From positions 1 through 64,000 of the forward strand of contig JACRLR010000052.1 in the NCBI GenBank assembly GCA_016219645.1: a DNA stretch of 64,000 nucleotides, written 5' to 3'. A program made the translations under genes and the position numbers. How positions within the stretch are numbered: position 1 is the stretch's first letter; every line of letters begins with the position of its first letter. Origin of the DNA: Nitrospirota bacterium (lineage in GTDB: Bacteria > Nitrospirota > Nitrospiria > Nitrospirales > Nitrospiraceae). A model generated the notes under the pieces. That model ran no database searches. It saw nothing but the letters and a program-made list of their open reading frames with translations, and was not told where the DNA came from. Of this stretch, positions 4,545 to 62,745 are shown piece by piece.

Positions 4545-4579
4545 CACAGGGCACTCGATAGCCTGCAGCTGATGCGAAG

Positions 4580-4684
4580 CCAGTCTGTCTGGTCTGTCTG
4601 GTCTGTCTGGTTCGTTTGGTTTCTTTCGTTCTTCGAGCCGAACCAACTAAACAAACGAGATAGACCGGACAGACAAGACAGACC
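4580..4684. repeat. Family D nonamer-repeat hairpin, copy 1
   Basis: The left arm is built of 9-bp units (GGTCTGTCT, then GGTTCGTTT). The right arm carries the complementary units (AACCAACTA, AGACAGACC) after a short centre near 4633. It lies between two convergent genes, so it could act as a bidirectional terminator here. Confidence 0.8.
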
Positions 4685-4693
4685 GGCAACCTG

Positions 4694-20519: not shown

Positions 20520-21554
20520 TCACGGCTCCAGCAACGGCACCAGCGCGCTGTGGCCTTGCTGGCGCGCAAAATCCACCGGTCGGTGTCCTGTTGTGGCCTT
20601 GACCGATTTGTCCGCTCCGTGGTTAAGCAGTAACGCCACGATCTCTCGATGTCCATGCAATGCAGCGACATGCATGGCGGTCATACGGTTATTCGTCGTC
20701 GCCTGCGTCACATCCGCACCGTGGTCCAACAACAGCGTGACAATATCCCGGTGCCCATTTTCGGCCGCGATGAAAAGCGGGGTCACGCCATCCATCCTCG
20801 TCTGCTTTATGTTGGCGCCGTTGGCCAACAACAGTCCTACGGTTCCCCGATGCCCGTTCTGAGCCGCGATGAAAAGCGGGGTCGTGCCGTCGTTCTTCCT
20901 CGCCTGCTCCACGTCTGCGCCATTGGCCAGCAACAGCTCCACGGTTTCTCGATGCCCATTCTGGGTCGCGATGAAAAGCGGGGTCACGCCGTCCGTTTTC
21001 GTCTGCTCCACGCCCCCGCCGTGAGCCAGCAGCAGCGCCACAATGTTCCGATGCCCCTGTTGCGCCGCCATGTGGAGCGGGGTCGCACCGTCCGTCGTCG
21101 CCTGTGTGACCTCTGCACCATGGTCCAGCAATAGCGATACGATCTTCCGATGCCCCTGCTCGGCTGCGACGATGAGCGGGGTCGTCCCCTTCGTCGTCGC
21201 CTGTGTGACCTCCGCACCGTGGTCCAGCAACAGCGACGCGATCTCCCGATGCCCCTGCTCGGCTGCGACGTAGAGTGGGCTTTCACCATCTATCGTCGCC
21301 TGCGTCACCTCCGCACCATGGTCCAACAACAGCGCTACAATCTCCCGATGCCCCTTTTTGGCTGCGACCAGGAGCGGGGTGAAGCCGACTGGATTAGCCG
21401 CATTGACGTCAGCCTCTTTCTTGATTTGTGTGTTCACCTCACCAAGGTCCCCTGTGAACGCTGCCTTAAGCAGCACTTCGTCCACCGGCCGCATGGCCAG
21501 AAGTATCGGCATCAGTCCGAGCACCGCTATCAGCACGATCCACCGTCGTGTCAT
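20520..21554 (-). CDS. Exported ankyrin-repeat protein, 344 aa
   Basis: GGGAG lies just upstream of the ATG. A signal peptide (residues 1-21, IVLIAVLGLMPILLA) is followed by an N-terminal cap and nine 33-34 residue ankyrin repeats with the standard G.TPL..AA..GH..IV.LLL.HGA pattern. The repeats are unusually alike, with VTQATTDG-type linkers recurring almost unchanged, which suggests recent internal duplication of a 99-bp unit. A periplasmic protein-protein interaction scaffold is likely; the partner is unknown. The gap 20279-20519 downstream contains nothing recognisable. Confidence 0.9.
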   Translation of the reverse strand: MTRRWIVLIAVLGLMPILLAMRPVDEVLLKAAFTGDLGEVNTQIKKEADVNAANPVGFTPLLVAAKKGHREIVALLLDHGAEVTQATIDGESPLYVAAEQGHREIASLLLDHGAEVTQATTKGTTPLIVAAEQGHRKIVSLLLDHGAEVTQATTDGATPLHMAAQQGHRNIVALLLAHGGGVEQTKTDGVTPLFIATQNGHRETVELLLANGADVEQARKNDGTTPLFIAAQNGHRGTVGLLLANGANIKQTRMDGVTPLFIAAENGHRDIVTLLLDHGADVTQATTNNRMTAMHVAALHGHREIVALLLNHGADKSVKATTGHRPVDFARQQGHSALVPLLEP

Positions 21555-27840: not shown

Positions 27841-27942
27841 TCGTTAGGCGTGAGGCGTCAGGTGTCAGGTGTCAGGCGACCGGAGGGCCAGTAATTCCCT
27901 CTCTATCACGCCTAACCCCTCACCCCTTACGCCTCACGTCTC
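27841..27942. repeat. Family B intercistronic repeat, copy 3 (guaA/rluB)
   Basis: This fills the whole gap between the guaA stop and the rluB start. On the + strand it has GTTAGGCGTGAGGCGTCAGG at one end and ACGCCTAACCCCTCACCCC at the other. These can pair, so the intercistronic RNA would fold into a hairpin. Confidence 0.8.
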
Positions 27943-38667: not shown

Positions 38668-38799
38668 TGGTTCATCGGTTTGGTTGGTTTATTTAGTTTA
38701 TTTGGTTGGTCTGATTCATTTGACTTGTTTCGTTCCTCTGATCGGAACCAACCGGACGAACAAACCAAACCAAATTAACCAAATAAACCAGATCAACCA
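38668..38799. repeat. Family D nonamer-repeat hairpin, copy 3
   Basis: At about 130 bp this is the longest copy. The left arm has GGTTGGTTT and ATTTAGTTT type 9-mers; the right arm has AACAAACCAAACCAAATTAACC. It lies between the divergent pentapeptide and Lon-like genes and ends only nine bases before the ribosome-binding site of the latter. Confidence 0.8.
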
Positions 38800-41255: not shown

Positions 41256-41332
41256 TGGTCTGTCTGGTCTGTCCGGTCTCTCTGGCCTATTCTGTCTATC
41301 CCGTCAGACACCAGACAGACCAGAAAGACCGG
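41256..41332. repeat. Family D nonamer-repeat hairpin, copy 5
   Basis: Units GGTCTGTCT, GGTCTGTCC, GGTCTCTCT, then the complementary AGACAGACC, AGAAAGACC. It begins a few bases after the cupredoxin stop codon and precedes a same-strand gene. Confidence 0.8.
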
Positions 41333-43539: not shown

Positions 43540-43819
43540 CAGACTGCAGAAAAACTCGGTTTACACACAATATGCTGTTGGAATCTTCCATGTTGGCGCC
43601 GATGGCAACAACGCCGCAGGATGCTCAAAATGGCCAGACTTCTCACCCGCCCAACCCTGACGCGCCGAGACGCGTCTTGGCCCAGGCAAGGCCGCAGCGT
43701 CTGAAGAAGGCTGAGGTTGAGGTCAAGGTTGAGCAAAGATTCTGAGGTCCCTCATCTCAACCTTAGCCTCAGCCTTAACCTTCCAATAACGCTGGCGGAC
43801 TTTTTCAGCATCCTGCTAG
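43536..43819. mobile_element. Family C MITE-like element, copy 2 (long form)
   Basis: It begins CTAGCAGACTGCAGAAAAAC and ends with the complement of CTAGCAGGATGCTGAAAAAG, giving inverted-repeat ends with CTAG at each tip. An internal GCAGGATGCTCAAAATGGCC (near 43615) marks a second, nested end that corresponds to the start of the short copies. The internal AGGTTGAGGTCAAGG / AACCTTAGCCTCAGCC hairpin is present. The left CTAG contains the stop codon of the exported protein gene. Confidence 0.9.
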
Positions 43820-46800: not shown

Positions 46801-47748
46801 TCATCGTGACCGTTTCGCCAGCTCGATCAGCACTCCTTCTCGCAATCCTAGATCGCTCACAAGGACCGCCGACATCCCCAACGTCTCCATCACAGTATGA
46901 ATGACGATCGCGCCGGCGGCAATCACGTCTTCTCGGCATTTTTCTAGGCCTGGCAGGCCGGCACGGTCGGCTTTTGTTCGGCTCAATAGCGTCTGTTCGA
47001 GTTCTTGAATCGTGCTGAGTTGCAACTGATATTTCTGGATTCTGGCCGGCTCATAGGAAGGGAGTTTTTGGGCCATGGCTGCCAGGCTGGTGATAGTGCC
47101 CGCTGTGCCGACGAAGGTTGCAGTCTGAAAGTTACCCATGACGGCGACTGCTGATTTGGTTTCTCTCGCGACCCACTCACGCGCCTGGCAGATTTCTTCA
47201 CCGGTCGGAGGATCGTGGTGCAGAACCCGTTCGGAAAGACGCACGACCCCGATGTCTATGGATCGCACGACCGGACTCAGGCCAGATCGACTCAGGATGA
47301 ATTCGGTGCTGCCGCCGCCGATATCGAGCGCCAGCAGGTCAGTCACGCCGGCAGGAAGACCAGAACGAATACCAAGCAACGTTCGACGTGCTTCTTCGTC
47401 ACCTGTGAGAACCTCGACCTCGAAGCCCGCTTCGCGCTTTACCCGATCGAGAAATTCATCACGGTTTGTTGCGTCCCGCGCCGCACTCGTCGCGACAACC
47501 GCCACAGCATCGACAGAAGAAGCCTCGATGATCTCGCGCCATTCCCTGAGGCACTGCAGCACCCGTTCCATCGCGGCAGCGTTCAACTGCCTGGTCTGAT
47601 CAACAGCCTCGCCCAGGCGAAGGATTCGCCGATCAGATCGTACTTCCTTGAGCCGTCCGTCAGGCAATAGATCGGCAATCAGCAACCGGCAGGTGAGGGT
47701 GCCGATATCAATCCCGGCGAGACGCATCCTTCGCGACGGGCCGGTCAT
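46801..47748 (-). CDS. Ppx/GppA-family phosphatase (exopolyphosphatase/pppGppase), 315 aa
   Basis: An ASKHA-fold enzyme with phosphate-1 motif GIDIGTLTCRLLIAD and phosphate-2 motif ALDIGGGSTEFIL. It is about 315 residues, the short, single-domain form, like many Ppx/GppA proteins that hydrolyse polyphosphate or pppGpp. The ATG at 47748 overlaps the stop of the upstream coiled-coil gene as ATGA, with AGGAGCGAGGC before it, so the two are co-translated. Which substrate it prefers cannot be told from sequence; it could tie phosphate stores or the stringent response to cell state. Confidence 0.9.
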   Translation of the reverse strand: MTGPSRRMRLAGIDIGTLTCRLLIADLLPDGRLKEVRSDRRILRLGEAVDQTRQLNAAAMERVLQCLREWREIIEASSVDAVAVVATSAARDATNRDEFLDRVKREAGFEVEVLTGDEEARRTLLGIRSGLPAGVTDLLALDIGGGSTEFILSRSGLSPVVRSIDIGVVRLSERVLHHDPPTGEEICQAREWVARETKSAVAVMGNFQTATFVGTAGTITSLAAMAQKLPSYEPARIQKYQLQLSTIQELEQTLLSRTKADRAGLPGLEKCREDVIAAGAIVIHTVMETLGMSAVLVSDLGLREGVLIELAKRSR

Positions 47749-48068
47749 GCCTCGCTCCTGATTTCCGCCACCTCCGACTCAAGCCTGTCGCGCGTCTCCT
47801 TGAGCTCCTGAATCTCCTTAACGAGTCGACCGACTTCCGCGTCGTACAGGACCCGCTCAGCCGATTCGCCTCCCTCGCCCAGGCTGATCGCTCGTTCGCC
47901 GACATCCCGATAGAGCTCCTGCAATTTCTCGTCGAGTTTGCGGATTTCGAGCCGGATCCGCAGCAGTTCAGTTTCCTGCAATGCACGGATCGCTGCCTGC
48001 GCCGTCCCATGACGCAACGTCGCAAACCCCGCCTTCAAATCATGCGTCAATCTTTGTAGAAGACCCAT
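47745..48068 (-). CDS. Small coiled-coil protein coupled to Ppx/GppA, 107 aa
   Basis: The protein is almost entirely helical: ATLRHGTAQAAIRALQETELLRIRLEIRKL and LVKEIQELKETRDRLESEV form heptad-rich stretches. It therefore likely dimerises as a coiled coil. It overlaps the Ppx/GppA gene by four bases (ATGA), so it is probably a partner or regulator of that phosphatase. No family was recognised. Confidence 0.7.
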   Translation of the reverse strand: MGLLQRLTHDLKAGFATLRHGTAQAAIRALQETELLRIRLEIRKLDEKLQELYRDVGERAISLGEGGESAERVLYDAEVGRLVKEIQELKETRDRLESEVAEIRSEA

Positions 48069-48157
48069 GCCCGTTGCTCATCTTTCTTCACAATCCAGTT
48101 ATGACAGGGTACAGGAAAACAGTTTTCAACCACCACGAAGTCGTCGAACGGAATCAT
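48047..48157 (-). CDS. Possible very small protein, 36 aa
   Basis: An ATG at 48157 opens a 36-codon frame (MIPFDDFVVVENCFPVPCHN, then WIVKKDEQRAWVFYKD) whose end overlaps the start of the coiled-coil gene by 22 bases. The sequence composition looks protein-like and it sits between the family C element and the Ppx operon. There is no ribosome-binding site, so it is only a candidate. Confidence 0.3.
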   Translation of the reverse strand: MIPFDDFVVVENCFPVPCHNWIVKKDEQRAWVFYKD

Positions 48158-48179
48158 GTTGGACAATAAAGAAATCTCC

Positions 48180-48386
48180 GCAGGATGCTCAAAAAGACCA
48201 ACCTTCTCACCCGCCCAACCCCGGCGCGCCAAGACGCGCCGTTACCGTTGGCAAGGCCGCAGCGGATGAAGAAGGCTGAGGTCGAGGTTAAGGTTAAGCG
48301 TCGAACAGGTTCTTGTTTGCTCAACCTTAGCCTCAGCCTTAACCTTCCCCAAAACCGCTGGCGGGCCTTTTTCAGCATTCTGCTAG
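48180..48386. mobile_element. Family C MITE-like element, copy 3
   Basis: Begins GCAGGATGCTCAAAAAGACC and ends GGCCTTTTTCAGCATTCTGCTAG. The internal hairpin arms AGGTCGAGGTTAAGGTTAAG and CTCAACCTTAGCCTCAGCC are well conserved. The terminal CTAG contains the complement of the recG stop codon. Confidence 0.9.
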
Positions 48387-50989
48387 CTGATCGACCCCAA
48401 TTCCAACTTTGTTTCCCACCGCCGCAACATTGCCTCCCGCACAGCACGGTGAGCCGGTGCTTTCAGCTGCGGGTCCTGCGTTAAGAGTGCAAAGGCCTCT
48501 TGCCGCGCCTGTTGAAGCAGATCAGCATCCCGCACCAGATTCGCAACTCGAAACTCCGGGATGCCCCATTGCCGGAATCCAAAAAACTCTCCCGGGCCGC
48601 GAATACGGAGGTCTTCTTCGGCAATCACAAACCCGTCGGTCGATCGCACCAGGGCCTCCAGCCGCTCCCGGGCGGGGGATAAGGGGGTAGGGGGATGGGA
48701 GGATAGGGGTAAAGGGATAGGGGGGTAGGGGGATAGAGGGGTATTACCCCCTTGCCCCCTTACCCCCTTACCCCCTGATACCCATGAGGCCATCAGAAGA
48801 CAATAGGACTGCTGCTCGCTTCGCCCAACCCGCCCGCGCAATTGGTGCAACTGCGCCAACCCGAACCGCTCAGCATGTTCGATCATCATCACCGTGGCAT
48901 TGGACACATCAACCCCGACTTCCACCACAGTCGTCGAGACCAGGACCTGGATCTCTCCCCTCTTATACGATGCCATGACCCTTTCTTTCTCTTCCGACGG
49001 CATACGACCGTGGACGAGCCCGACGCGAAACTCGGCCAATTCATCCGCTTGCAACTGCTCCGCCCCTTGCATGGCCGCCTGCAGATCGGTCTTCTCCGAT
49101 TCTTCGACGAGCGGATACACGACATAAGCCTGCCTTCCGCGCCGCAATTCATCTCTCAGAATCTGATAGGCCCGCCCTCGTTGGCTATCACGTAAGAGAA
49201 AGGTCCGCACCGGCTTTCGCCCCGGCGGCATCTGATCAATGACCGAGACATCCAGATCCCCGTACACCGTCATGGCCAGCGTGCGTGGGATCGGTGTCGC
49301 GGTCAGCACCAGCACATCAGGCCGATACCCCTTCTCTACGAGCGTCTTCCGTTGGAGTACACCGAACCGATGCTGTTCATCCACTACCGCCAGCCCGAGC
49401 TTCGCAAAGGTCACGCCCTGCTGAATGATCGCATGGGTTCCGATGACAATCTGTGCAGTCCCGGAGGCCACTTGCTCGCGCACGGCTTTGCGCGCTGCGA
49501 CACGGCCACCTCCGCTCACGAGCACCACGGAAAGCCCGAGCGGTTCCAACAGCCCCTTCATCGTTCGATAGTGCTGCTCGGCGAGAATTTCCGTCGGCGC
49601 CATCAGTGCCGCCTGGTAGCCAGACCCGCAAGCCAGCACCATCGCTTGCACCGCCACGATGGTTTTACCGGAGCCGACATCACCCTGCACCAGGCGGTTC
49701 ATCGGCCTCCGCGAGGTCATGTCAGACAGAATCTCGCGAATCACTCGCTCTTGCGCAGCAGTCAATTGAAAGGGCAGCGCCCGATCCAATTTGCCGAGGA
49801 GCGGCGTCTTCGGATTGAACGACACCTGCTTCACCTCTTCCTTCATCACCCGTTGCCGCGATGCCAGTGCGAGTTGCAGCACAAACAGCTCTTCGAACGC
49901 CAAGCGACGATGCGCAGGGGTGATACCACGATCGAGTTGTCCCCCATCAGTCCCAGGCTGAGGGAAATGCACGTCCTGAATGGCTTGTTGAATGGGCAGC
50001 AATCGATAGCGGGCGCGAAGCGGAACCGGCAACAGCTCTTGCGCTTCCGCGGCATGCGCGTCAAGCAAGCTTTTCATGAGTGCACGCATCTGCCGGGACG
50101 TCCACCCCTTGGTTTCGTGATACACCGGAACGATACGCCCCACGTGCAACGGCGCTTCAGTTGCGGCGCCTATCACTTCATATTGCGCAACCTCCATCCT
50201 CATGGCCACCCACCCCTGTGCGCCTGCCATCACCCGTCCAGTCAGCATGATGCTGGTTCCAACCGTGAAGAGTGGCTCGAGAAACGGCTGATTGAAGAAT
50301 ACAGCCTGGAGGCGCCCGGTTGAGTCTTCCACCACAATATCGAGGATCGTGAGGCGGCGCCTGCGGGCGTTCTTCGCCTCGCTTCGGATGATCGTGCCGC
50401 AGATCGATGCCTGCTCACCGGGCACGAGCTGCCCGATCGGGGTCATGACCGAACGATCCTCATAGCGCCACGGTACCGTCCACAGAGCATCTTCAACCGT
50501 CTCGATCCCGAACCGTTGAAGCAACAATGTGCGTTTCGGGCCGACTCCCTTCACGAAACGAATGGGCTGCTCCCACCATGACCGCGATGGAGCGGGATCT
50601 ATGACAGGCTCGCGGACCGCGACAGGCTCCGGCCTATTCCACACTTGAGCAGGATCGTGAGCCGCCTTACGCAAGACCCCAAGAATAACTTTGGCTTCCC
50701 GCAGCCGACGCTGCTCATCCTCTGCCGGCAGCCGTTCCTGATCGTGAAGAAACAGCCCCCGCAATTCGAGCAACGCCGCTTCAATTGCGCGTGGATAGAC
50801 GTGATCGGACAGGGCCTGCATGACCTGTGAAGAGACGAAACGATTCAAGTTCTTGACGGTGGGTAGATGGGCGAAGGCATCGCGCGTCGCAAAATCGATC
50901 GGGCGAGCGACACGGTCCAGCCATCGCTGAAACTGTTCCGGGGGGTTGGGCTCGGAAGAGCGCCGTATCACAGCGCTGGATCGTATCAT
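48383..50989 (-). CDS. recG: ATP-dependent DNA helicase RecG, 868 aa
   Basis: RecG remodels stalled replication forks and branched recombination intermediates. Helicase landmarks are clear: Walker A GDVGSGKT (436-443), DEQH box (537-540), TATPIPRTLA (563-572) and the QLRGRVGR motif near 716-723. The wedge/OB domain is about 185-275. The first ~140 residues (helical, PEQFQRWLDRVARPIDF) are longer than in E. coli RecG and end at the helix-hairpin-helix FVKGVGPKRTLLLQRFG. Residues ~735-771 are an in-frame proline/serine-rich insertion (NTPLSPYPPIPLPLSS), encoded by a G-rich hairpin tract, between QSYCLLMAS and ARERLEALV where other RecG proteins are short. The stop lies in a family C end. Confidence 0.96.
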   Translation of the reverse strand: MIRSSAVIRRSSEPNPPEQFQRWLDRVARPIDFATRDAFAHLPTVKNLNRFVSSQVMQALSDHVYPRAIEAALLELRGLFLHDQERLPAEDEQRRLREAKVILGVLRKAAHDPAQVWNRPEPVAVREPVIDPAPSRSWWEQPIRFVKGVGPKRTLLLQRFGIETVEDALWTVPWRYEDRSVMTPIGQLVPGEQASICGTIIRSEAKNARRRRLTILDIVVEDSTGRLQAVFFNQPFLEPLFTVGTSIMLTGRVMAGAQGWVAMRMEVAQYEVIGAATEAPLHVGRIVPVYHETKGWTSRQMRALMKSLLDAHAAEAQELLPVPLRARYRLLPIQQAIQDVHFPQPGTDGGQLDRGITPAHRRLAFEELFVLQLALASRQRVMKEEVKQVSFNPKTPLLGKLDRALPFQLTAAQERVIREILSDMTSRRPMNRLVQGDVGSGKTIVAVQAMVLACGSGYQAALMAPTEILAEQHYRTMKGLLEPLGLSVVLVSGGGRVAARKAVREQVASGTAQIVIGTHAIIQQGVTFAKLGLAVVDEQHRFGVLQRKTLVEKGYRPDVLVLTATPIPRTLAMTVYGDLDVSVIDQMPPGRKPVRTFLLRDSQRGRAYQILRDELRRGRQAYVVYPLVEESEKTDLQAAMQGAEQLQADELAEFRVGLVHGRMPSEEKERVMASYKRGEIQVLVSTTVVEVGVDVSNATVMMIEHAERFGLAQLHQLRGRVGRSEQQSYCLLMASWVSGGKGVRGQGGNTPLSPYPPIPLPLSSHPPTPLSPARERLEALVRSTDGFVIAEEDLRIRGPGEFFGFRQWGIPEFRVANLVRDADLLQQARQEAFALLTQDPQLKAPAHRAVREAMLRRWETKLELGSIS
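48668..48785. repeat. G-rich hairpin tract inside recG
   Basis: On the + strand, runs of four to six G separated by AT, TA or ATAA (e.g. GGGGGTAGGGGGATGGG) continue to about 48742; a C-rich complementary part (CCCCCTTGCCCCCTTACCCC) runs from about 48747. It could form a G-quadruplex on one strand or a hairpin. It is translated as the RecG insertion. Confidence 0.85.
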
Positions 50990-51017
50990 AGCTTCTCTTC
51001 CTCCTCAACGAGCAGAA

Positions 51018-51110
51018 CTGGTTCATCTGGTTTGTTTAGTTAATTTGGTTGTTTGGTTCGTCTGGTTAATTTCATTCAACCAAACAAACCAAATAACCAG
51101 ATCAACCAGT
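51018..51110. repeat. Family D nonamer-repeat hairpin, copy 6
   Basis: The left arm has GGTTCATCT, GGTTTGTTT, AGTTAATTT units; the right arm has AACCAAACAAACC and AATAACCAGATCAACC. It lies between divergent recG and TPR/peptidase genes, about 75 bases from the latter's start. Confidence 0.8.
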
Positions 51111-51185
51111 CTTGCCGATTAGCTGACAATCCTATGCCGAGCCTACTCAGAGTGATAGATTGAATCTTATCTGAATAGGGCTCGT

Positions 51186-52616
51186 ATGTACCGTCGCAAC
51201 ATCTTTCACATTTTGTATCCTGTCGCCTGTCTGATCGGACTGTTCATCCTCTATCAAGCCTGGTTCAAACCGACCTATCTACCCACGCCGGCACCGAGTC
51301 CGCTCAATGACATCGTGGAAACCTCACGGGAGGCGCCTCTGGAACCACGCCGTGATGGCCGAGCTGAGCTGGAACAGAAACAGGCTCGCCTGATCGATCC
51401 CAGTGTGGTTCCTAAAACGACACATCACGAACTATTGGAGACGATCCGCGACGAGATTGAAAGAGGTAACGTCAAATCCGCGGAAGCCACACTCACCAAT
51501 CTCCCGGCCACTGCATTAACCGAGACCAAGACCCGCCTCTACACTGCCGTGCTATGGAACAATCTTGGCATTCAGCTGGAAAAGGCGGGCGGCACCGCAG
51601 CCTCGATGTATGCCTTCAAGAAGGCATCGTCGTTGGATGCCACTAACCCGACCATTCACCTCAACCTTGCCCATGCCTACTGGGAATTGCGTGATCCAGG
51701 CATGACGCAGGACTTCCTGGAACAGCTGGTTGCCATGGCCCCCAACGAGCCCTTCCCTCATCTGGCACTGGCCGAACTTTTTCAGGAACGGGATGAGCTC
51801 GGCGAAGCAGCTCGTCATCTCGAGCAAGCCAGTGCGCGCGCGGGCAAAGACCCTGCTGTCCAATCCTATCTGCGAACCGTCACGGCCAAAGTCCGTGGAG
51901 CCGAAAAGAGCGAAGAGCGCCTCACCAGCCGAAACAGCGCGCACTTTACCGTGAAATTCAACGGGGAAGCCGATCAAACCACTTGGGCCGCTGTGTTAGA
52001 GATTCTTGAAGAGGCCTACCGGGAGATTGGGCAAAAGTTCGGGCATTTCCCGTCAAAAACCATCGTCGTCGTCCTACACGCCAAGTCCTCATTCCAAAGC
52101 GCAACCGGCAGCCCCATATGGGCCGATGGGCTCTTCGATCCTACGCTTGGCCGCATCCAAGTTCCAACCCAGGACGCATTGGCAGACCGTGCCTGGCTCA
52201 GGCGCGTGCTGCGACACGAATTCGTACATGCCCTCCTGCACGACCAACTCGGCCCCGCCGGTAGCGCCATTCCAACCTGGCTCAATGAAGGTTTGGCCAT
52301 GGAATTGTCCGGGGATCACTGGTCGGATCTCGACCAGACTATGACGCAGAACTTTACACCAATCCCTCTGCCTGCCTTAGAGGGAGCTTGGGGAGGATTG
52401 TCCAGTGACGCCGCGACCGTGGCCTATCTGGAGGCGAACTCGGCCGTGCACTATCTCATCGACCGATTCGGCATGCATCGGGTACAAGAACTCCTCACAC
52501 GGCTCAAGGCGAAGCAGGCGCTTTCTACCGCCATGCAATCGCAGCTCTCGCTGTCGTACGAGCAGTTCCAGTCCATGTGGGTAGATCAACTGCGGGAGCA
52601 GGGGAAGAAAAGCTGA
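51186..52616 (+). CDS. Membrane-anchored TPR protein with gluzincin metallopeptidase domain, 476 aa
   Basis: An N-terminal transmembrane anchor (about 7-25) is followed by a linker and TPR-like helices (about 85-240). The C-terminal peptidase-MA-type domain has the zinc motif HEFVH (344-348) and the third ligand region WLNEGLAMELSG with Glu368, as in gluzincins. The active site should face the periplasm, with the TPRs recruiting a protein substrate. It resembles other TPR-gluzincin proteins found in diverse bacteria, whose substrates are unknown. Two strand-rich segments (HFTVKFNGEAD; TIVVVLHAKSSFQSATG) precede the active site, typical of the family. Confidence 0.85.
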   Translation: MYRRNIFHILYPVACLIGLFILYQAWFKPTYLPTPAPSPLNDIVETSREAPLEPRRDGRAELEQKQARLIDPSVVPKTTHHELLETIRDEIERGNVKSAEATLTNLPATALTETKTRLYTAVLWNNLGIQLEKAGGTAASMYAFKKASSLDATNPTIHLNLAHAYWELRDPGMTQDFLEQLVAMAPNEPFPHLALAELFQERDELGEAARHLEQASARAGKDPAVQSYLRTVTAKVRGAEKSEERLTSRNSAHFTVKFNGEADQTTWAAVLEILEEAYREIGQKFGHFPSKTIVVVLHAKSSFQSATGSPIWADGLFDPTLGRIQVPTQDALADRAWLRRVLRHEFVHALLHDQLGPAGSAIPTWLNEGLAMELSGDHWSDLDQTMTQNFTPIPLPALEGAWGGLSSDAATVAYLEANSAVHYLIDRFGMHRVQELLTRLKAKQALSTAMQSQLSLSYEQFQSMWVDQLREQGKKS

Positions 52617-53535: not shown

Positions 53536-53649
53536 GTGCGCTTCTCCCTTGTCTGTGCTGCAGTTTCTCATTGGCCCCCCTTTAGGGTAAATTCCCCACT
53601 ATGGGGGAAACCCCTACGAAAGAGGGGGCTAAAGGGAGACGAGGGAGGA

Positions 53650-53764
53650 GTTCATCTGGTCTGTCTGGTCTGTCTGGTCTATCTTGTCGGTCTGATTGAT
53701 TTTGGGTTGTGGTTGAACCAGGCTAACCAGATAGACCAGACAGACCGAATAGACGAGATAGACC
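53650..53764. repeat. Family D nonamer-repeat hairpin, copy 7
   Basis: Three consecutive GGTCTGTCT units, then GGTCTATCT-like and diverged units; the right arm has AACCAGATAGACCAGACAG and GAATAGACGAGATAGACC. It lies between divergent genes; the remaining gap to 53928 has no gene. Confidence 0.8.
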
Positions 53765-53928
53765 CTCTCTGGAGTGAGGTTCGTCGCCGAGCAGGAAAGT
53801 GGTTACTTGCGTGCTGCTTCTCGACAAGGGGGAGGCGGATTTTCAGAGGCCCCCGCTAGGGGAACCGTGCCGAAGATGGAATACCCCTGCTGTTGCTGTG
53901 CGGAGCAGATGCCGGTATTATCCTGTCC

Positions 53929-58359: not shown

Positions 58360-58600
58360 CTAGCAGGCTGCGGAAAAACTCAGTTTATACATAAGACACT
58401 GCTGCTGCAATTTTCACAGAATGGCGCTGATGTCACAATCGCTCAGGATGCTCAAAAAGACCGTCCAGCAAGGCCGCAGCGGATGAAGAAGGCTTAGGTC
58501 GAGGTTAAGGTTAAGCATTGAACAGGTTCTTGTTTACTCAACCTTAGCCTCAACCTTAACCTTTCAATAACGCTGGCGGACTTTTTCAGCATCCTGCTAG
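58360..58600. mobile_element. Family C MITE-like element, copy 4 (long form)
   Basis: CTAG lies at both tips: it begins CTAGCAGGCTGCGGAAAAAC and ends CTTTTTCAGCATCCTGCTAG. A nested internal end CAGGATGCTCAAAAAGACCG lies near 58445. It shows the same architecture as copy 2 but with a ~40-base shorter interior. The right-hand CTAG carries the complement of the PilZ gene's stop codon. Confidence 0.9.
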
Positions 58601-58977: not shown

Positions 58978-60450
58978 TCACCGCGCTGGTTCAAATAGAC
59001 CCAACTGCATTTCTTCTGCGCGGGTCAAGGGAATCGGGTAGCGTTCCGTAAAGCAGGCATTGCAATATTGGCCTGGCGCACCTGGAGAGGCGCCCAGCAT
59101 GCCATCGAGGCTTAAATAGGCCAGGCTATCGGCCGTAATGTACTTTCGAATCTCTTCGGTCGTGTGGCTGGAGGCAATCAATTCCCTCCTGGTAGGCGTA
59201 TCGATTCCGTAGAAGCAGGGGGAGGTGATCGGTGGAGAACTGATGCGCATATGCACTTCTTTAGCCCCGGCATTCCGAAGCATCTTGACGATCTTTCGGC
59301 TCGTCGTACCCCGAACCAGTGAGTCATCGACCACGACAACCCGTTTCCCCTCCAGAACTTCCGGCACAGCATTGAGCTTGACCTTGACACCGAAGTGGCG
59401 AATTGATTGCTCTGGTTCAATGAAGGTACGACCGACATAGTGGTTCCTGATCAGCCCGAGTTCGAACGGAATCCCCGCCCCTTCCGCATAGCCGAGCGAG
59501 GCAGGCACCCCGGAGTCCGGCACCGGAATAACGATGTCAGCCGGCACAGGCGATTCCTTCGCCAACTGTCTGCCCAACGATTTGCGCGTAGCATAGACCG
59601 TATTTGCGCCGAAAATTTTACTGTCCGGGCGAGCAAAGTATACATACTCAAAGACGCATAGGGCCGGACTCACCGGCGTAAAGGGTTTGTGACTCGTCAC
59701 ACCCTTGTCGTTCAGCACAACCAATTCGCCTGGCTCGACCTCGCGAACAATTTCAGCTCCGAGCAGGTCGAATGCGCAGGTTTCTGAGGCCACGAGATAG
59801 GTATCGCCTAGGCGACCGAGACAGAGCGGCCGGAACCCATGGGGGTCGCGCGCTGCAATGATCCCGTCGTCTGTCTGCAGGACGATAGAAAATGCCCCGC
59901 GGACCTGGCTCAACGCATCGATGATCCGAGCCAGCAACGTATTGGCCCTGGAATGCGCGATCAGATGGATGACGACTTCGCTGTCCGAGGTGGATTGGAA
60001 GATGGCGCCGTACGCTTCGAGCTCGTGGCGCAGCACTTGCGCGTTGATGAGGTTGCCGTTATGCGCGAGCGCGAGATTTCCGAATGCGAAATTGACCGAG
60101 AACGGCTGGATGTTCTTGAGGTCGCTCCCGCCCGCCGTGGAGTAGCGATTGTGACCGATCGCCATTGAACCGGTCAATTGCTCGAGCACCTGGGTATTAT
60201 AGATATCCGCAACGAGCCCCTTCCCCTTATGAACGTAAAACTGCTCGCCATCGCCTGAGACGATACCGGACGCTTCCTGTCCTCGATGCTGCAAGGCATA
60301 GAGCCCGAGATAGGTAAGATTTGCCGCTTCCTTGTGGCCATAGATGCCGAAGACCGCACATTCGTCGTGAAACTTGTCGGGAGTAATCAGTGGTAAGGGG
60401 TGAGGGGTAAGGGGTGAGGCGACCGGAAGAACTAGTCGATCCTGACTCAT
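58978..60450 (-). CDS. purF: Amidophosphoribosyltransferase, 490 aa
   Basis: Catalyses the first committed step of purine synthesis (PRPP plus glutamine to phosphoribosylamine). The amidotransferase nucleophile is Cys32 in [15 protein letters not shown], which becomes the N-terminal residue after propeptide removal in B. subtilis-type enzymes; the PRPP-binding motif is [13 protein letters not shown]. The propeptide here (31 residues) contains a proline-rich run, residues 11-23 ([13 protein letters not shown] in part), encoded by a family B repeat. The ATG at 60450 lies in the same repeat, with GAGGGG adjacent. No later start codon exists before the Cys. It follows purL on the same strand. Confidence 0.96.
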
Positions 60451-60497
60451 AACCCCTCGCCCCTAACGCCTAACGCCTTACCCTTCACGCCTGACCT
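60387..60497. repeat. Family B intercistronic repeat, copy 5 (purL/purF)
   Basis: Spans the purL end, the gap and the purF start: on the + strand it has GTAAGGGGTGAGGGGTAAGG near 60396 and TAACCCCTCGCCCCTAACGC near 60450, which can pair. It contributes the last codons and stop of purL and the start and propeptide of purF. Confidence 0.85.
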
Positions 60498-62745
60498 CTC
60501 CCGCTTCATTCAGCCTTCGTTCGATCGAAAAGGCCCACCGGTCGTGAAGAATATCCACCGGAAGATCGATGCGGCACCCCTCGCTCCATTGCCCTTCCTC
60601 CACATCGATGATAAAGCGGTCTCCGCCTACCGTCCCGATCTTCATCGCTGGAATACCGGAATCCCAAGCTCGATTCAATACTTGACCGGCCACCTCGGGC
60701 CTCACTGACAGGACCACCCGCGACTGGCTCTCACCAAACAAGAGCGCATCACGCCTCGATTGATCAAGGGACAATCTTACCATAGCCCCTCGCCTGCTGT
60801 CCGGGGCAGAGATACAACATTCGGCCAGTGCGACAGACAGACCGCCATCTGAACAGTCATGGGCGGACTGCACCAAGCCCTCACGAATGATGTGCAGTAG
60901 GAATTCATGAAGCGCCTTCTCTGCCTCCAAACTCAGGAAGGGGGGCGATCCCTGTTCCCGGTGATGAAGCACTTTCAGGTATTCACTGCCGCCCAGGTCC
61001 TCTTTCGTCTTGCCCAGGAGAAGAATCGCATCGCCGTCCTGCTTGAACCACTGCGTCATCGTCTTATCGGCCGATTCGATCAAACCCACCATGCCCAGCA
61101 TCGGTGTCGGGTAGATCGAGAGACCATTGGTCTCATTATAGAAACTCACGTTGCCGCTGACGATAGGAATCGCGAAATGTTCGCAGGCATCCTTCATCCC
61201 CTCGATCGCCAGCACAAACTGCCACATAATCTCCGTCCGCTCGGGGTTCCCGAAGTTCAAACAGTCCGTGAGCCCGATCGGTTCCGCCCCGGAACAGGCC
61301 AGATTTCTCGCCGCTTCGGCCACCGCAAGGCGCGCCCCTTCATACGGATGCAGCAGGCAATAGCGACTGTTACAGTCCACCGTCATCGCAATGGCCTTGT
61401 TCGTTCCCTTGATCCGCACCACCGCGGCGTCGGAACCTGGCCGGACCATCGTGTTGGTCCGCACCATATGATCATACTGTTCATAGGCCCACCGTTTGCT
61501 CGCAATCGTCGGCGACTCAAGCAAGGACAACAGCGCCGCACTCGCATCCTTCACATCGGGAAGCGCATCGTAATTGAGGTTGGTCAGCATGTCCTGATAA
61601 CCAGGCGGCTGATAGGGACGCTCATAGCGGGGCCCCTCATCGGCCAGTGCTTTCGCCGGGATCTCCGCCACCACGTTGCCCTGATCTCTCACACGGAGAA
61701 TCCCATCGCCAGTCACCCGTCCCACCACCGCCACATCGAGGTCCCACTTCTTGCAGATCCTGACGCACTCGTCTTCCTTCCCAGCCTGCGCGACCATCAG
61801 CATACGTTCTTGCGATTCCGACAACATCAATTCATAGGGCGTCATGCCAGGCTCACGCCGAGGGACATCGGTCAGGTCCAGATCGATTCCATTGCCGGCC
61901 CGCGATGCCATTTCACAAGACGAACTGGTCAACCCTGCCGCCCCCATGTCCTGAATGCCGACGAGCAAATCGCCCGCCATCAATTCAAGACAGGCTTCCA
62001 ACAACAGCTTCTCGGTAAAGGGATCGCCCACCTGCACCGTAGGCCGCTTCTGTTCCGACTGGTCGTCGAAGGAATCGGACGCCATCGTCGCGCCGTGAAT
62101 CCCATCGCGGCCCGTCTTCGATCCGAAATAGATCACCGGATTGCCGACCCCGGCTGCCGTTCCCAGAAAAATCTTGTCTTTGCGCGCGATGCCGAGGCAA
62201 AACACGTTTACGAGCGGATTCTGCGAATAAATATCGTTGAAGACGATTTCGCCTCCGACCGTCGCTACCCCCATACAATTCCCGTATGCACTGATGCCGG
62301 ATACCACACCCTTGAGCAGACGTCGGTTATTCGCGTTGTCGAGCTCGCCGAACCGCAGCGCATTGAGCAAGGCGATCGGACGCGCGCCCATCGTAAAGAT
62401 GTCGCGCAGAATCCCCCCCACCCCCGTCGCCGCCCCCTGATAGGGCTCGATGAACGAGGGATGGTTATGCGACTCCATCTTGAAGACCACACACAGTCCG
62501 TCGCCAATATCCACCGCACCGGCATTCTCCCCTGGCCCCTGCACCACCCGCGGCCCAGTCGTCGGCAATTTCTTCAAGTGCACACGCGAACTCTTATAGG
62601 AGCAGTGCTCCGACCACATGACTGAGAACATGCCCAATTCAGTGATATTCGGCTCCCGCCCCAAAATCTCGACGATCTTCTTATACTCATCGTCCGTCAG
62701 ATTATGCTGCGCGATGAGATCTTTCGTAATCACTTGGGCTTGCAT
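60478..62745 (-). CDS. purL: Phosphoribosylformylglycinamidine synthase subunit PurL, 755 aa
   Basis: The small form of FGAM synthase, which needs the separate PurQ and PurS subunits (not in this window). Landmark segments are intact: [58 protein letters not shown], and [16 protein letters not shown]. The reaction converts FGAR to FGAM in the fourth step of purine synthesis. A purF partner lies downstream. The C-terminus (EVRREG) and stop are contributed by the family B repeat; the gene start resembles a partial copy of itself at 63516-63563. Confidence 0.97.

What the first reader, a model, noticed from the sequence alone, without database searches (positions are those of the whole stretch)
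48668..48787. G-rich hairpin tract inserted in frame in recG
RecG residues about 735-771 come from G-runs (GGGGGTAGGGGGATGGG and similar) followed by a complementary C-rich part. The product is a Pro/Ser-rich loop between two conserved helicase segments. The DNA could form a G-quadruplex or hairpin inside the gene of an enzyme that acts on stalled forks and unusual structures. The insertion is in a surface loop region and the frame is kept.
Basis: partly seen in the sequence, partly recalled or inferred. Interest (0 to 1): 0.75.

Follow-up and report, generated by a model that had tools for sequence, protein, structure and literature searches.

The report
Repeat hairpin inside a helicase gene
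A G-rich repeat hairpin sits in frame inside the DNA-repair gene recG of a Nitrospira bacterium; it is one of hundreds of similar hairpins in that genome, which fill gaps between genes and occasionally protein loops, and whose repeated word is exchanged from species to species at the same spot.

Summary
In detail: window 48674-48783 is a G-arm/C-arm tract of a degenerate ~8-base unit (GGGGGRTA / TTACCCCC). It is read in frame in recG (minus strand, 868 aa) and encodes residues ~736-772, a disordered loop between the motif VI strand and the TRG hairpin. The interpretation changes. This is not a RecG-specific structure sensor but one coding member of a genome-wide family of tandem-repeat hairpins. 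I found 132 in 864 kb of this Nitrospira genome; a 400-kb Markov control gave none. Units are 9, 7, 6 or 8 bases, the G-rich arm comes first, and most lie in intergenic gaps. Two more in-frame cases occur, in CheA and RfbB. At orthologous sites related species carry a hairpin of a different unit, an ordinary sequence, or nothing. Precedents exist for each part: G-rich heptamer pairs in Xanthomonas and Nostoc, class replacement in the Nostoc trnL P6b hairpin, and in-frame Rickettsia palindromic elements. The combination appears undescribed for Nitrospira. What writes new units into old sites is unknown; RAYT and reverse-transcriptase explanations found no support.

The parts
48674..48743 (+). 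G-rich arm of the tract (degenerate GGGGGRTA units) as read on the + strand; it is the 3', C-rich arm of the recG mRNA
48744..48783 (+). C-rich arm (TTACCCCC units); in the recG mRNA it is the 5' G-rich arm GGGGGUAAGGGGGUAAGGGGGCAAGGGGGUAA
48383..50989 (-). recG, ATP-dependent DNA helicase, 868 aa; the tract encodes about residues 736-772
   Evidence: ORF; Pfam RecG_wedge/DEAD/Helicase_C/RecG_dom3_C; NCBIfam PRK10917
51017..51110 (.). 9-mer (YYTGGTYNR) hairpin between recG and the divergent gene; the orthologous site carries other units in relatives
48275..48350 (.). 6-mer (RAGGTT) hairpin just downstream of recG, inside a dispersed repeat; relatives have 7-mer, 8-mer or no hairpin here
4579..4687 (.). 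9-mer hairpin (GTCTGTCTGGTCTGTCTGG)
27846..27941 (.). 7-mer hairpin (AGGCGTGAGGCGTCAGG / CGCCTAACCCCTCACCCC)
38685..38790 (.). 9-mer hairpin (TGGTTTATTTAGTTTATTTGGTT)
41257..41330 (.). 9-mer hairpin (GGTCTGTCTGGTCTGTCC)
43706..43783 (.). 6-mer hairpin (GAAGGCTGAGGTTGAGG)
53642..53770 (.). 9-mer hairpin (CTGGTCTGTCTGGTCTGTCTGG)
60389..60499 (.). 7-mer hairpin (GGTAAGGGGTGAGGGGTAAGGGG)

Best explanation
The recG tract is one coding member of a genome-wide, rapidly evolving family of tandem-repeat hairpins in Nitrospira. Each is a G-rich 5' arm of degenerate 6-9 base units, a short loop, and a C-rich 3' arm of the same unit. The elements accumulate wherever sequence is unconstrained: intergenic gaps, and flexible protein linkers if the frame stays open. 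In RecG the tract occupies a disordered loop ahead of the TRG hairpin, so the enzyme most likely tolerates it rather than uses it. Inferred steps: arms lengthen and shorten by slippage; whole elements are gained, lost or replaced by another unit type; purifying selection removes in-frame stops and frameshifts. At RNA or DNA level the intergenic members probably act, if at all, as stem-loops between co-directional genes. Shown: family, geometry, coding frame, species-to-species replacement. Predicted: loop disorder. Not shown: how new units enter, and any function.
For: 132 periodic hairpins in 864 kb (84 of period 9, 36 of 7, 8 of 6, 2 of 8), 123 with more G than C in the 5' arm; 64 against 0 in the Markov control of 400 kb. 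Among 136 nine-base G-arms, 112 have a C-arm within 130 nt downstream and 2 upstream. Placements: 97 co-directional, 20 convergent, 12 divergent, 3 coding; co-directional hairpins begin a median 12.5 nt after the upstream stop codon. In-frame cases: RecG, CheA (C16:164085-164178) and RfbB (C7:57557-57632). G/C tracts occur at the same RecG site in 10 relatives, with tract presence changing at least 9 times on the loop-free RecG tree. In CheA the same linker carries GGGGTAA, GCGTGAA, GAGGTT or GTTTCAA units in different species. Intergenic sites beside recG and cheA show the same replacement. RfbB orthologs without the element show the ordinary short loop. Stop trinucleotides by frame: RecG 0/12/17, CheA 0/28/57, the would-be in-frame TAA being CAA in RecG and TTA/TCA in CheA. 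AlphaFold gives the tract pLDDT about 30 in an otherwise mostly ordered model.
Against: Absence of in-frame stops is expected of any intact gene, so it shows translation but not a benefit. That neutral slippage could keep one consensus (YYTGGTYNR) at scores of sites is doubtful and points to an active spreading or consensus-keeping process that was not identified. Within the 9-mer class the two arms of a hairpin are no more complementary to each other than to arms of other hairpins (rank 0.51), which argues against fine selection on pairing, although arm subtype is correlated (rho 0.44-0.46). The patchy RecG pattern could include recombination of loop alleles.
Confidence: 0.72

Rival explanations
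1. RecG-specific regulatory element: the G4 or hairpin in the gene or mRNA senses replication stress or tunes RecG translation at a domain boundary.
For: Highest G4Hunter score in the window; strong RNA stem in the coding strand (-64.6 kcal/mol, z -2.2); position between the motif VI strand and the TRG hairpin.
Against: The same class is genome-wide and occurs in CheA and RfbB; the closest relative and most Nitrospira RecG lack it; in CheA the unit changes to types without G-runs.
Confidence: 0.06
2. Dispersed mobile elements: the hairpins are small non-autonomous elements (REP/MITE-like) copied into new sites, the coding ones being in-frame insertions as in Rickettsia palindromic elements.
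For: Common unit families at hundreds of sites and in several genera; clear empty orthologs in RfbB with about 21 nt replaced by about 69 nt; 6-mer hairpins lie inside a larger dispersed repeat with ends like CAGGATGCTGAAAAA.
Against: No shared flanks or constant core seen across unit types; Y1 (RAYT-type) transposase genes not found in several hairpin-rich genomes (G076, G094, G106, G271; some of these bins are incomplete); no target duplication seen at RfbB.
Confidence: 0.2
3. Functional RNA stem-loops between co-transcribed genes (processing, 3'-end protection or partial termination), kept by selection for a stem at the site while the sequence drifts; coding cases are spill-over.
For: Most lie in co-directional gaps, often filling them; orthologous sites keep a hairpin while its unit changes; arm subtype is correlated.
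Against: No T-tract terminator pattern in the recG region; own arms pair no better than foreign arms; only about a fifth to a third of gaps longer than 60 nt are occupied, and many orthologous sites are empty.
Confidence: 0.25

Closest known systems
G-rich heptamer repeats of Xanthomonas (GGGAATC) and Nostoc (GGGGAYT), Rehm et al. 2015, PMC4692102
   Same: Degenerate G-rich heptamers, 183-186 copies in the two Xanthomonas genomes, mostly intergenic; 70-75 cases of convergent inverted pairs; G-strand side just after stops, C-strand side near starts; G4-capable.
   Different: One unit type per genome there; here 6-, 7-, 8- and 9-mers coexist, the pair is nearly obligatory for the 9-mers, the unit is replaced at orthologous sites, and in-frame copies sit in conserved genes.
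P6b stem of the Nostoc trnL group I intron, Class I/II heptamers (Kaasalainen et al. 2015, PMC4476775)
   Same: A hairpin whose two arms are degenerate heptamers, one class repeatedly replacing the other at the same site.
   Different: One RNA site and two classes there; here many sites, many unit types, including protein-coding sites.
Rickettsia palindromic elements (RPE), described in review PMC10969869
   Same: Short palindromes inserted in frame in unrelated genes and translated.
   Different: RPE copies are homologous sequences of defined families (~150 bp); here copies share only a short degenerate unit.
REP/BIME elements with RAYT transposases
   Same: Many short intergenic stem-loops.
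   Different: No constant stem sequence; no tie to Y1 transposase genes.
Fused telomeric repeats (TTAGGG)n(CCCTAA)n (from general knowledge)
   Same: Head-to-head G-arm then C-arm of a short G-rich unit.
   Different: No telomerase or any RVT_1 protein found in this genome.

Membership tests
RecG helicase (host gene) | RecG wedge, SF2 helicase domains, RecG domain 3 | tested here: met
G-rich heptamer repeats (Rehm type) | G-rich degenerate tandem unit with G4-forming sequence | tested here: met
   recG tract G4Hunter 2.2-2.3; G4 folding itself not assayed
G-rich heptamer repeats (Rehm type) | Unit length 7 | tested here: not met
   recG tract has period 8; family-wide 9-mers dominate, 36 of 132 are 7-mers
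G-rich heptamer repeats (Rehm type) | Occurs as convergent inverted pairs near gene ends | tested here: met
   112 of 136 nine-base arms paired downstream; median 12.5 nt after the stop codon
Rickettsia palindromic elements | Palindrome read in frame within a conserved gene | tested here: met
   RecG, CheA, RfbB
Rickettsia palindromic elements | Copies homologous along their length | tested here: not met
   own-genome DNA search gives only 19-61 nt weak matches to the recG tract besides itself
REP elements mobilised by RAYT | Associated Y1 transposase | tested here: not met
   no association apparent over 32 genomes
Intrinsic terminator | GC stem followed by a T-tract | tested here: not met
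   none found in 47700-51400
Known structured RNA (Rfam) | Match above gathering score | tested here: not met
   0 matches in the window
Telomerase-type repeat addition | Reverse transcriptase gene | tested here: not met
   no RVT_1 match in G000

The most novel reading that the evidence does not exclude
Nitrospira has an unknown activity that writes G-rich tandem repeats at chosen or broken sites and rewrites existing hairpins with a new unit. Its products have the head-to-head geometry of fused telomeres: each 3' end of a break receives repeats of one type and the ends are then joined. That would explain the G-arm almost always coming first, arms sharing a subtype but not unit number or order, replacement of a short target stretch, and exchange of units at orthologous sites.
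Probability: 0.1. Interest if true: 0.88.

Novelty: new variant of a known kind. Interest (0 to 1): 0.55.

Why it matters
If the pattern holds, Nitrospira genomes carry several hundred short hairpins whose repeated word can be exchanged as a block at a fixed place, in gaps between genes and in protein linkers alike. That makes the old question of where degenerate 6-9 base repeats in bacteria come from directly testable, because species pairs with the same site and different units are at hand. It also shows a route by which such DNA adds disordered linkers to core enzymes (RecG, CheA, RfbB), and warns that G4-looking tracts in single genes may be members of a genome-wide family. For RecG itself the tract is probably of little consequence.

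Tried and rejected
RecG-specific G4 sensor: rejected as main reading because of the family, the relatives and the other coding cases. RAYT mobilisation: Y1_Tnp not found in several hairpin-rich genomes. Reverse transcriptase (telomerase-like or retron) source: no RVT_1 in this genome. One arm copied from the other, or fine compensatory selection on the stem: own arms are no more complementary than foreign arms, although the subtype is shared. Intrinsic terminator: no hit. Known RNA family: no Rfam hit. A phylum-wide look shows the 9-mer type chiefly in this genus, with scattered presence in neighbouring genera. A literature search for Nitrospira repeats of this kind found nothing relevant; most subscription papers are not held. 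Evidence for recombination of RecG loop alleles from identity profiles was only weak.

Full report
What is there. The window comes from a Nitrospira-related genome: all closest RecG matches are Nitrospira or Nitrospirae bins, and the window is contig C52 of a 3.65-Mb assembly. recG lies on the minus strand at 48383-50989 and encodes 868 aa. Inside it, window 48674-48783 is a G-rich arm of about 70 nt followed by a C-rich arm of about 40 nt, both built of degenerate 8-base units. In the mRNA the order is a 40-nt G-arm, then the C-arm. The codons run TGG GTA TCA GGG GGT AAG GGG GTA AGG GGG CAA GGG GGT AAT ACC CCT CTA .... An 8-base unit with TAA puts a stop in frame every third unit; at that place the tract has CAA.

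RecG across relatives. Between QSYCLLMAS and ARERLEALV, non-Nitrospira RecG has almost no linker (about 58 aa from motif VI to the end of the segment compared), most Nitrospira have 70-77 aa with ordinary sequence (for example GGVLFRSAKPKAAGEPPS), and eleven proteins including the window's have the G/C tract (82-89 aa; 68 in N. moscoviensis, where the C-arm is missing). One of these, L024, is cut off by its contig end inside the tract, so its length is unknown. All complete tract alleles share a G-Q step where the stop would fall. On a RecG tree built without the loop, tract presence changes at least 9 times; the closest relative, L009, lacks it (19 of 38 inner branches are well supported). 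Relative to T. maritima RecG (1GM5) the tract lies between residues 695 and 701, just ahead of the TRG hairpin, whose loop couples motor and wedge (PMC6213257). An AlphaFold model (mean pLDDT 80) gives residues 738-769 pLDDT below 50, with the flanking strand and helix ordered.

The family. Scanning for hairpins with internal periodicity gave 64 in 400 kb against none in a Markov control, and 132 in 864 kb. That suggests about 550 per genome by extrapolation. Periods are 9 (84), 7 (36), 6 (8) and 8 (2). The 5' arm has more G than C in 123 of 132; median span is 87 nt and median loop 25 nt. Placement is mostly intergenic: 97 between co-directional genes, 20 convergent, 12 divergent, 3 coding (gene calls by a simple codon-score ORF caller, so approximate). 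In co-directional gaps the hairpin starts a median of 12.5 nt after the stop codon. In one 16-kb run (C16:150-166 kb) most of the gaps between co-directional genes hold a hairpin, often of different units.

Other coding cases. A CheA-type kinase (C16:163327-165570) has a GGGGTAA hairpin in a linker (EDVRGKGLGVRGEEVPDSREASDTPHALRLTPDGS), and a C-arm alone in an earlier linker. dTDP-glucose 4,6-dehydratase (C7:57340-58452) has a GAGTGGT/GAAGTGG hairpin in a short segment; L197 has it too, L190 keeps only the C-arm, and L192-L195 and L198 have the ordinary short segment.

Unit exchange. In the CheA linker, species of the same genus carry different units at the same in-frame site: GGGGTAA type (L139-L142, L145, L147, L152), GCGTGAA type (L143, L144, L150, L155), GAGGTT type (L146, L151, L153) and GTTTCAA type (L149, part of L155) (unit types assigned by eye). 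The gap upstream of recG shows 9-mers of two subtypes, a 6-mer within a dispersed repeat, other units, or none; the gap downstream shows 6-, 7- and 8-mers or none; gaps beside cheA behave alike. In-frame stop trinucleotides are zero in RecG and CheA tracts although 29 and 85 occur out of frame, as expected of translated genes.

How it may work. In the 9-mer class the two arms share the C/T subtype at two positions (rho 0.44 and 0.46) but not unit number, and a G-arm is no more complementary to its own C-arm than to others. So the arms come from one type but were not copied unit by unit from each other recently. I take slippage plus gain, loss and replacement of whole elements in unconstrained sequence, with frame selection in genes, as the most likely account; the entry step is unknown. 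A stem-loop role between co-transcribed genes and a mobile-element origin are both open. A telomere-fusion-like origin fits the head-to-head geometry, but no reverse transcriptase was found, so it is only the most novel reading not excluded.

Comparison. Rehm et al. (PMC4692102) describe G-rich heptamers in Xanthomonas and Nostoc with inverted pairs and the same placement next to genes. Kaasalainen et al. (PMC4476775) describe repeated replacement of one heptamer class by another in a single intron hairpin of Nostoc. Rickettsia palindromic elements are in-frame coding palindromes (PMC10969869). The Nitrospira family joins these traits and differs in unit diversity and unit exchange at protein-coding sites. 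I found no paper on it in the open library.

Limits. Draft bins, one quarter of one genome scanned, crude gene calls, hairpin thresholds chosen by me, a gene tree that recombination can distort, and no expression data.

Noticed in passing
C16:163327-165570 (L097:3327-5570): CheA-type kinase with an MshE-like c-di-GMP-binding motif (NCBIfam NF053729) and two repeat-encoded linkers, one with only the C-rich arm.
   Followed up: partly
window 43690-43800, 48255-48395, 58500-58600: A dispersed repeat with ends like CAGGATGCTGAAAAAG / CTTTTTCAGCATCCTG carries the 6-mer RAGGTT hairpins; a related repeat occurs without such a hairpin upstream of recG in L017, L025 and L044.
   Followed up: partly
genomes G239, G005, G090, G009: In hairpin-poor genomes several of the few 9-mer arrays lie within a few kilobases of each other, as if brought in with transferred gene blocks.
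   Followed up: no
L024 (contig end): The contig of a related bin ends inside the recG tract, so these tracts may break short-read assemblies.
   Followed up: no
L155, CheA linker: Two unit types (GCGTGAA and GTTTCAA) lie in the same linker, perhaps one hairpin inserted in another: a possible intermediate of unit exchange.
   Followed up: no
C16:201410-201521 (L099): A 9-mer hairpin forms the C-terminal end of a long filamentous-haemagglutinin-like ORF (HQIDQIDKTDQTDQ).
   Followed up: no
window 20747-21380: Tandem repeats of about 99 bp, probably a repeat protein gene (ankyrin-like by unit length).
   Followed up: no
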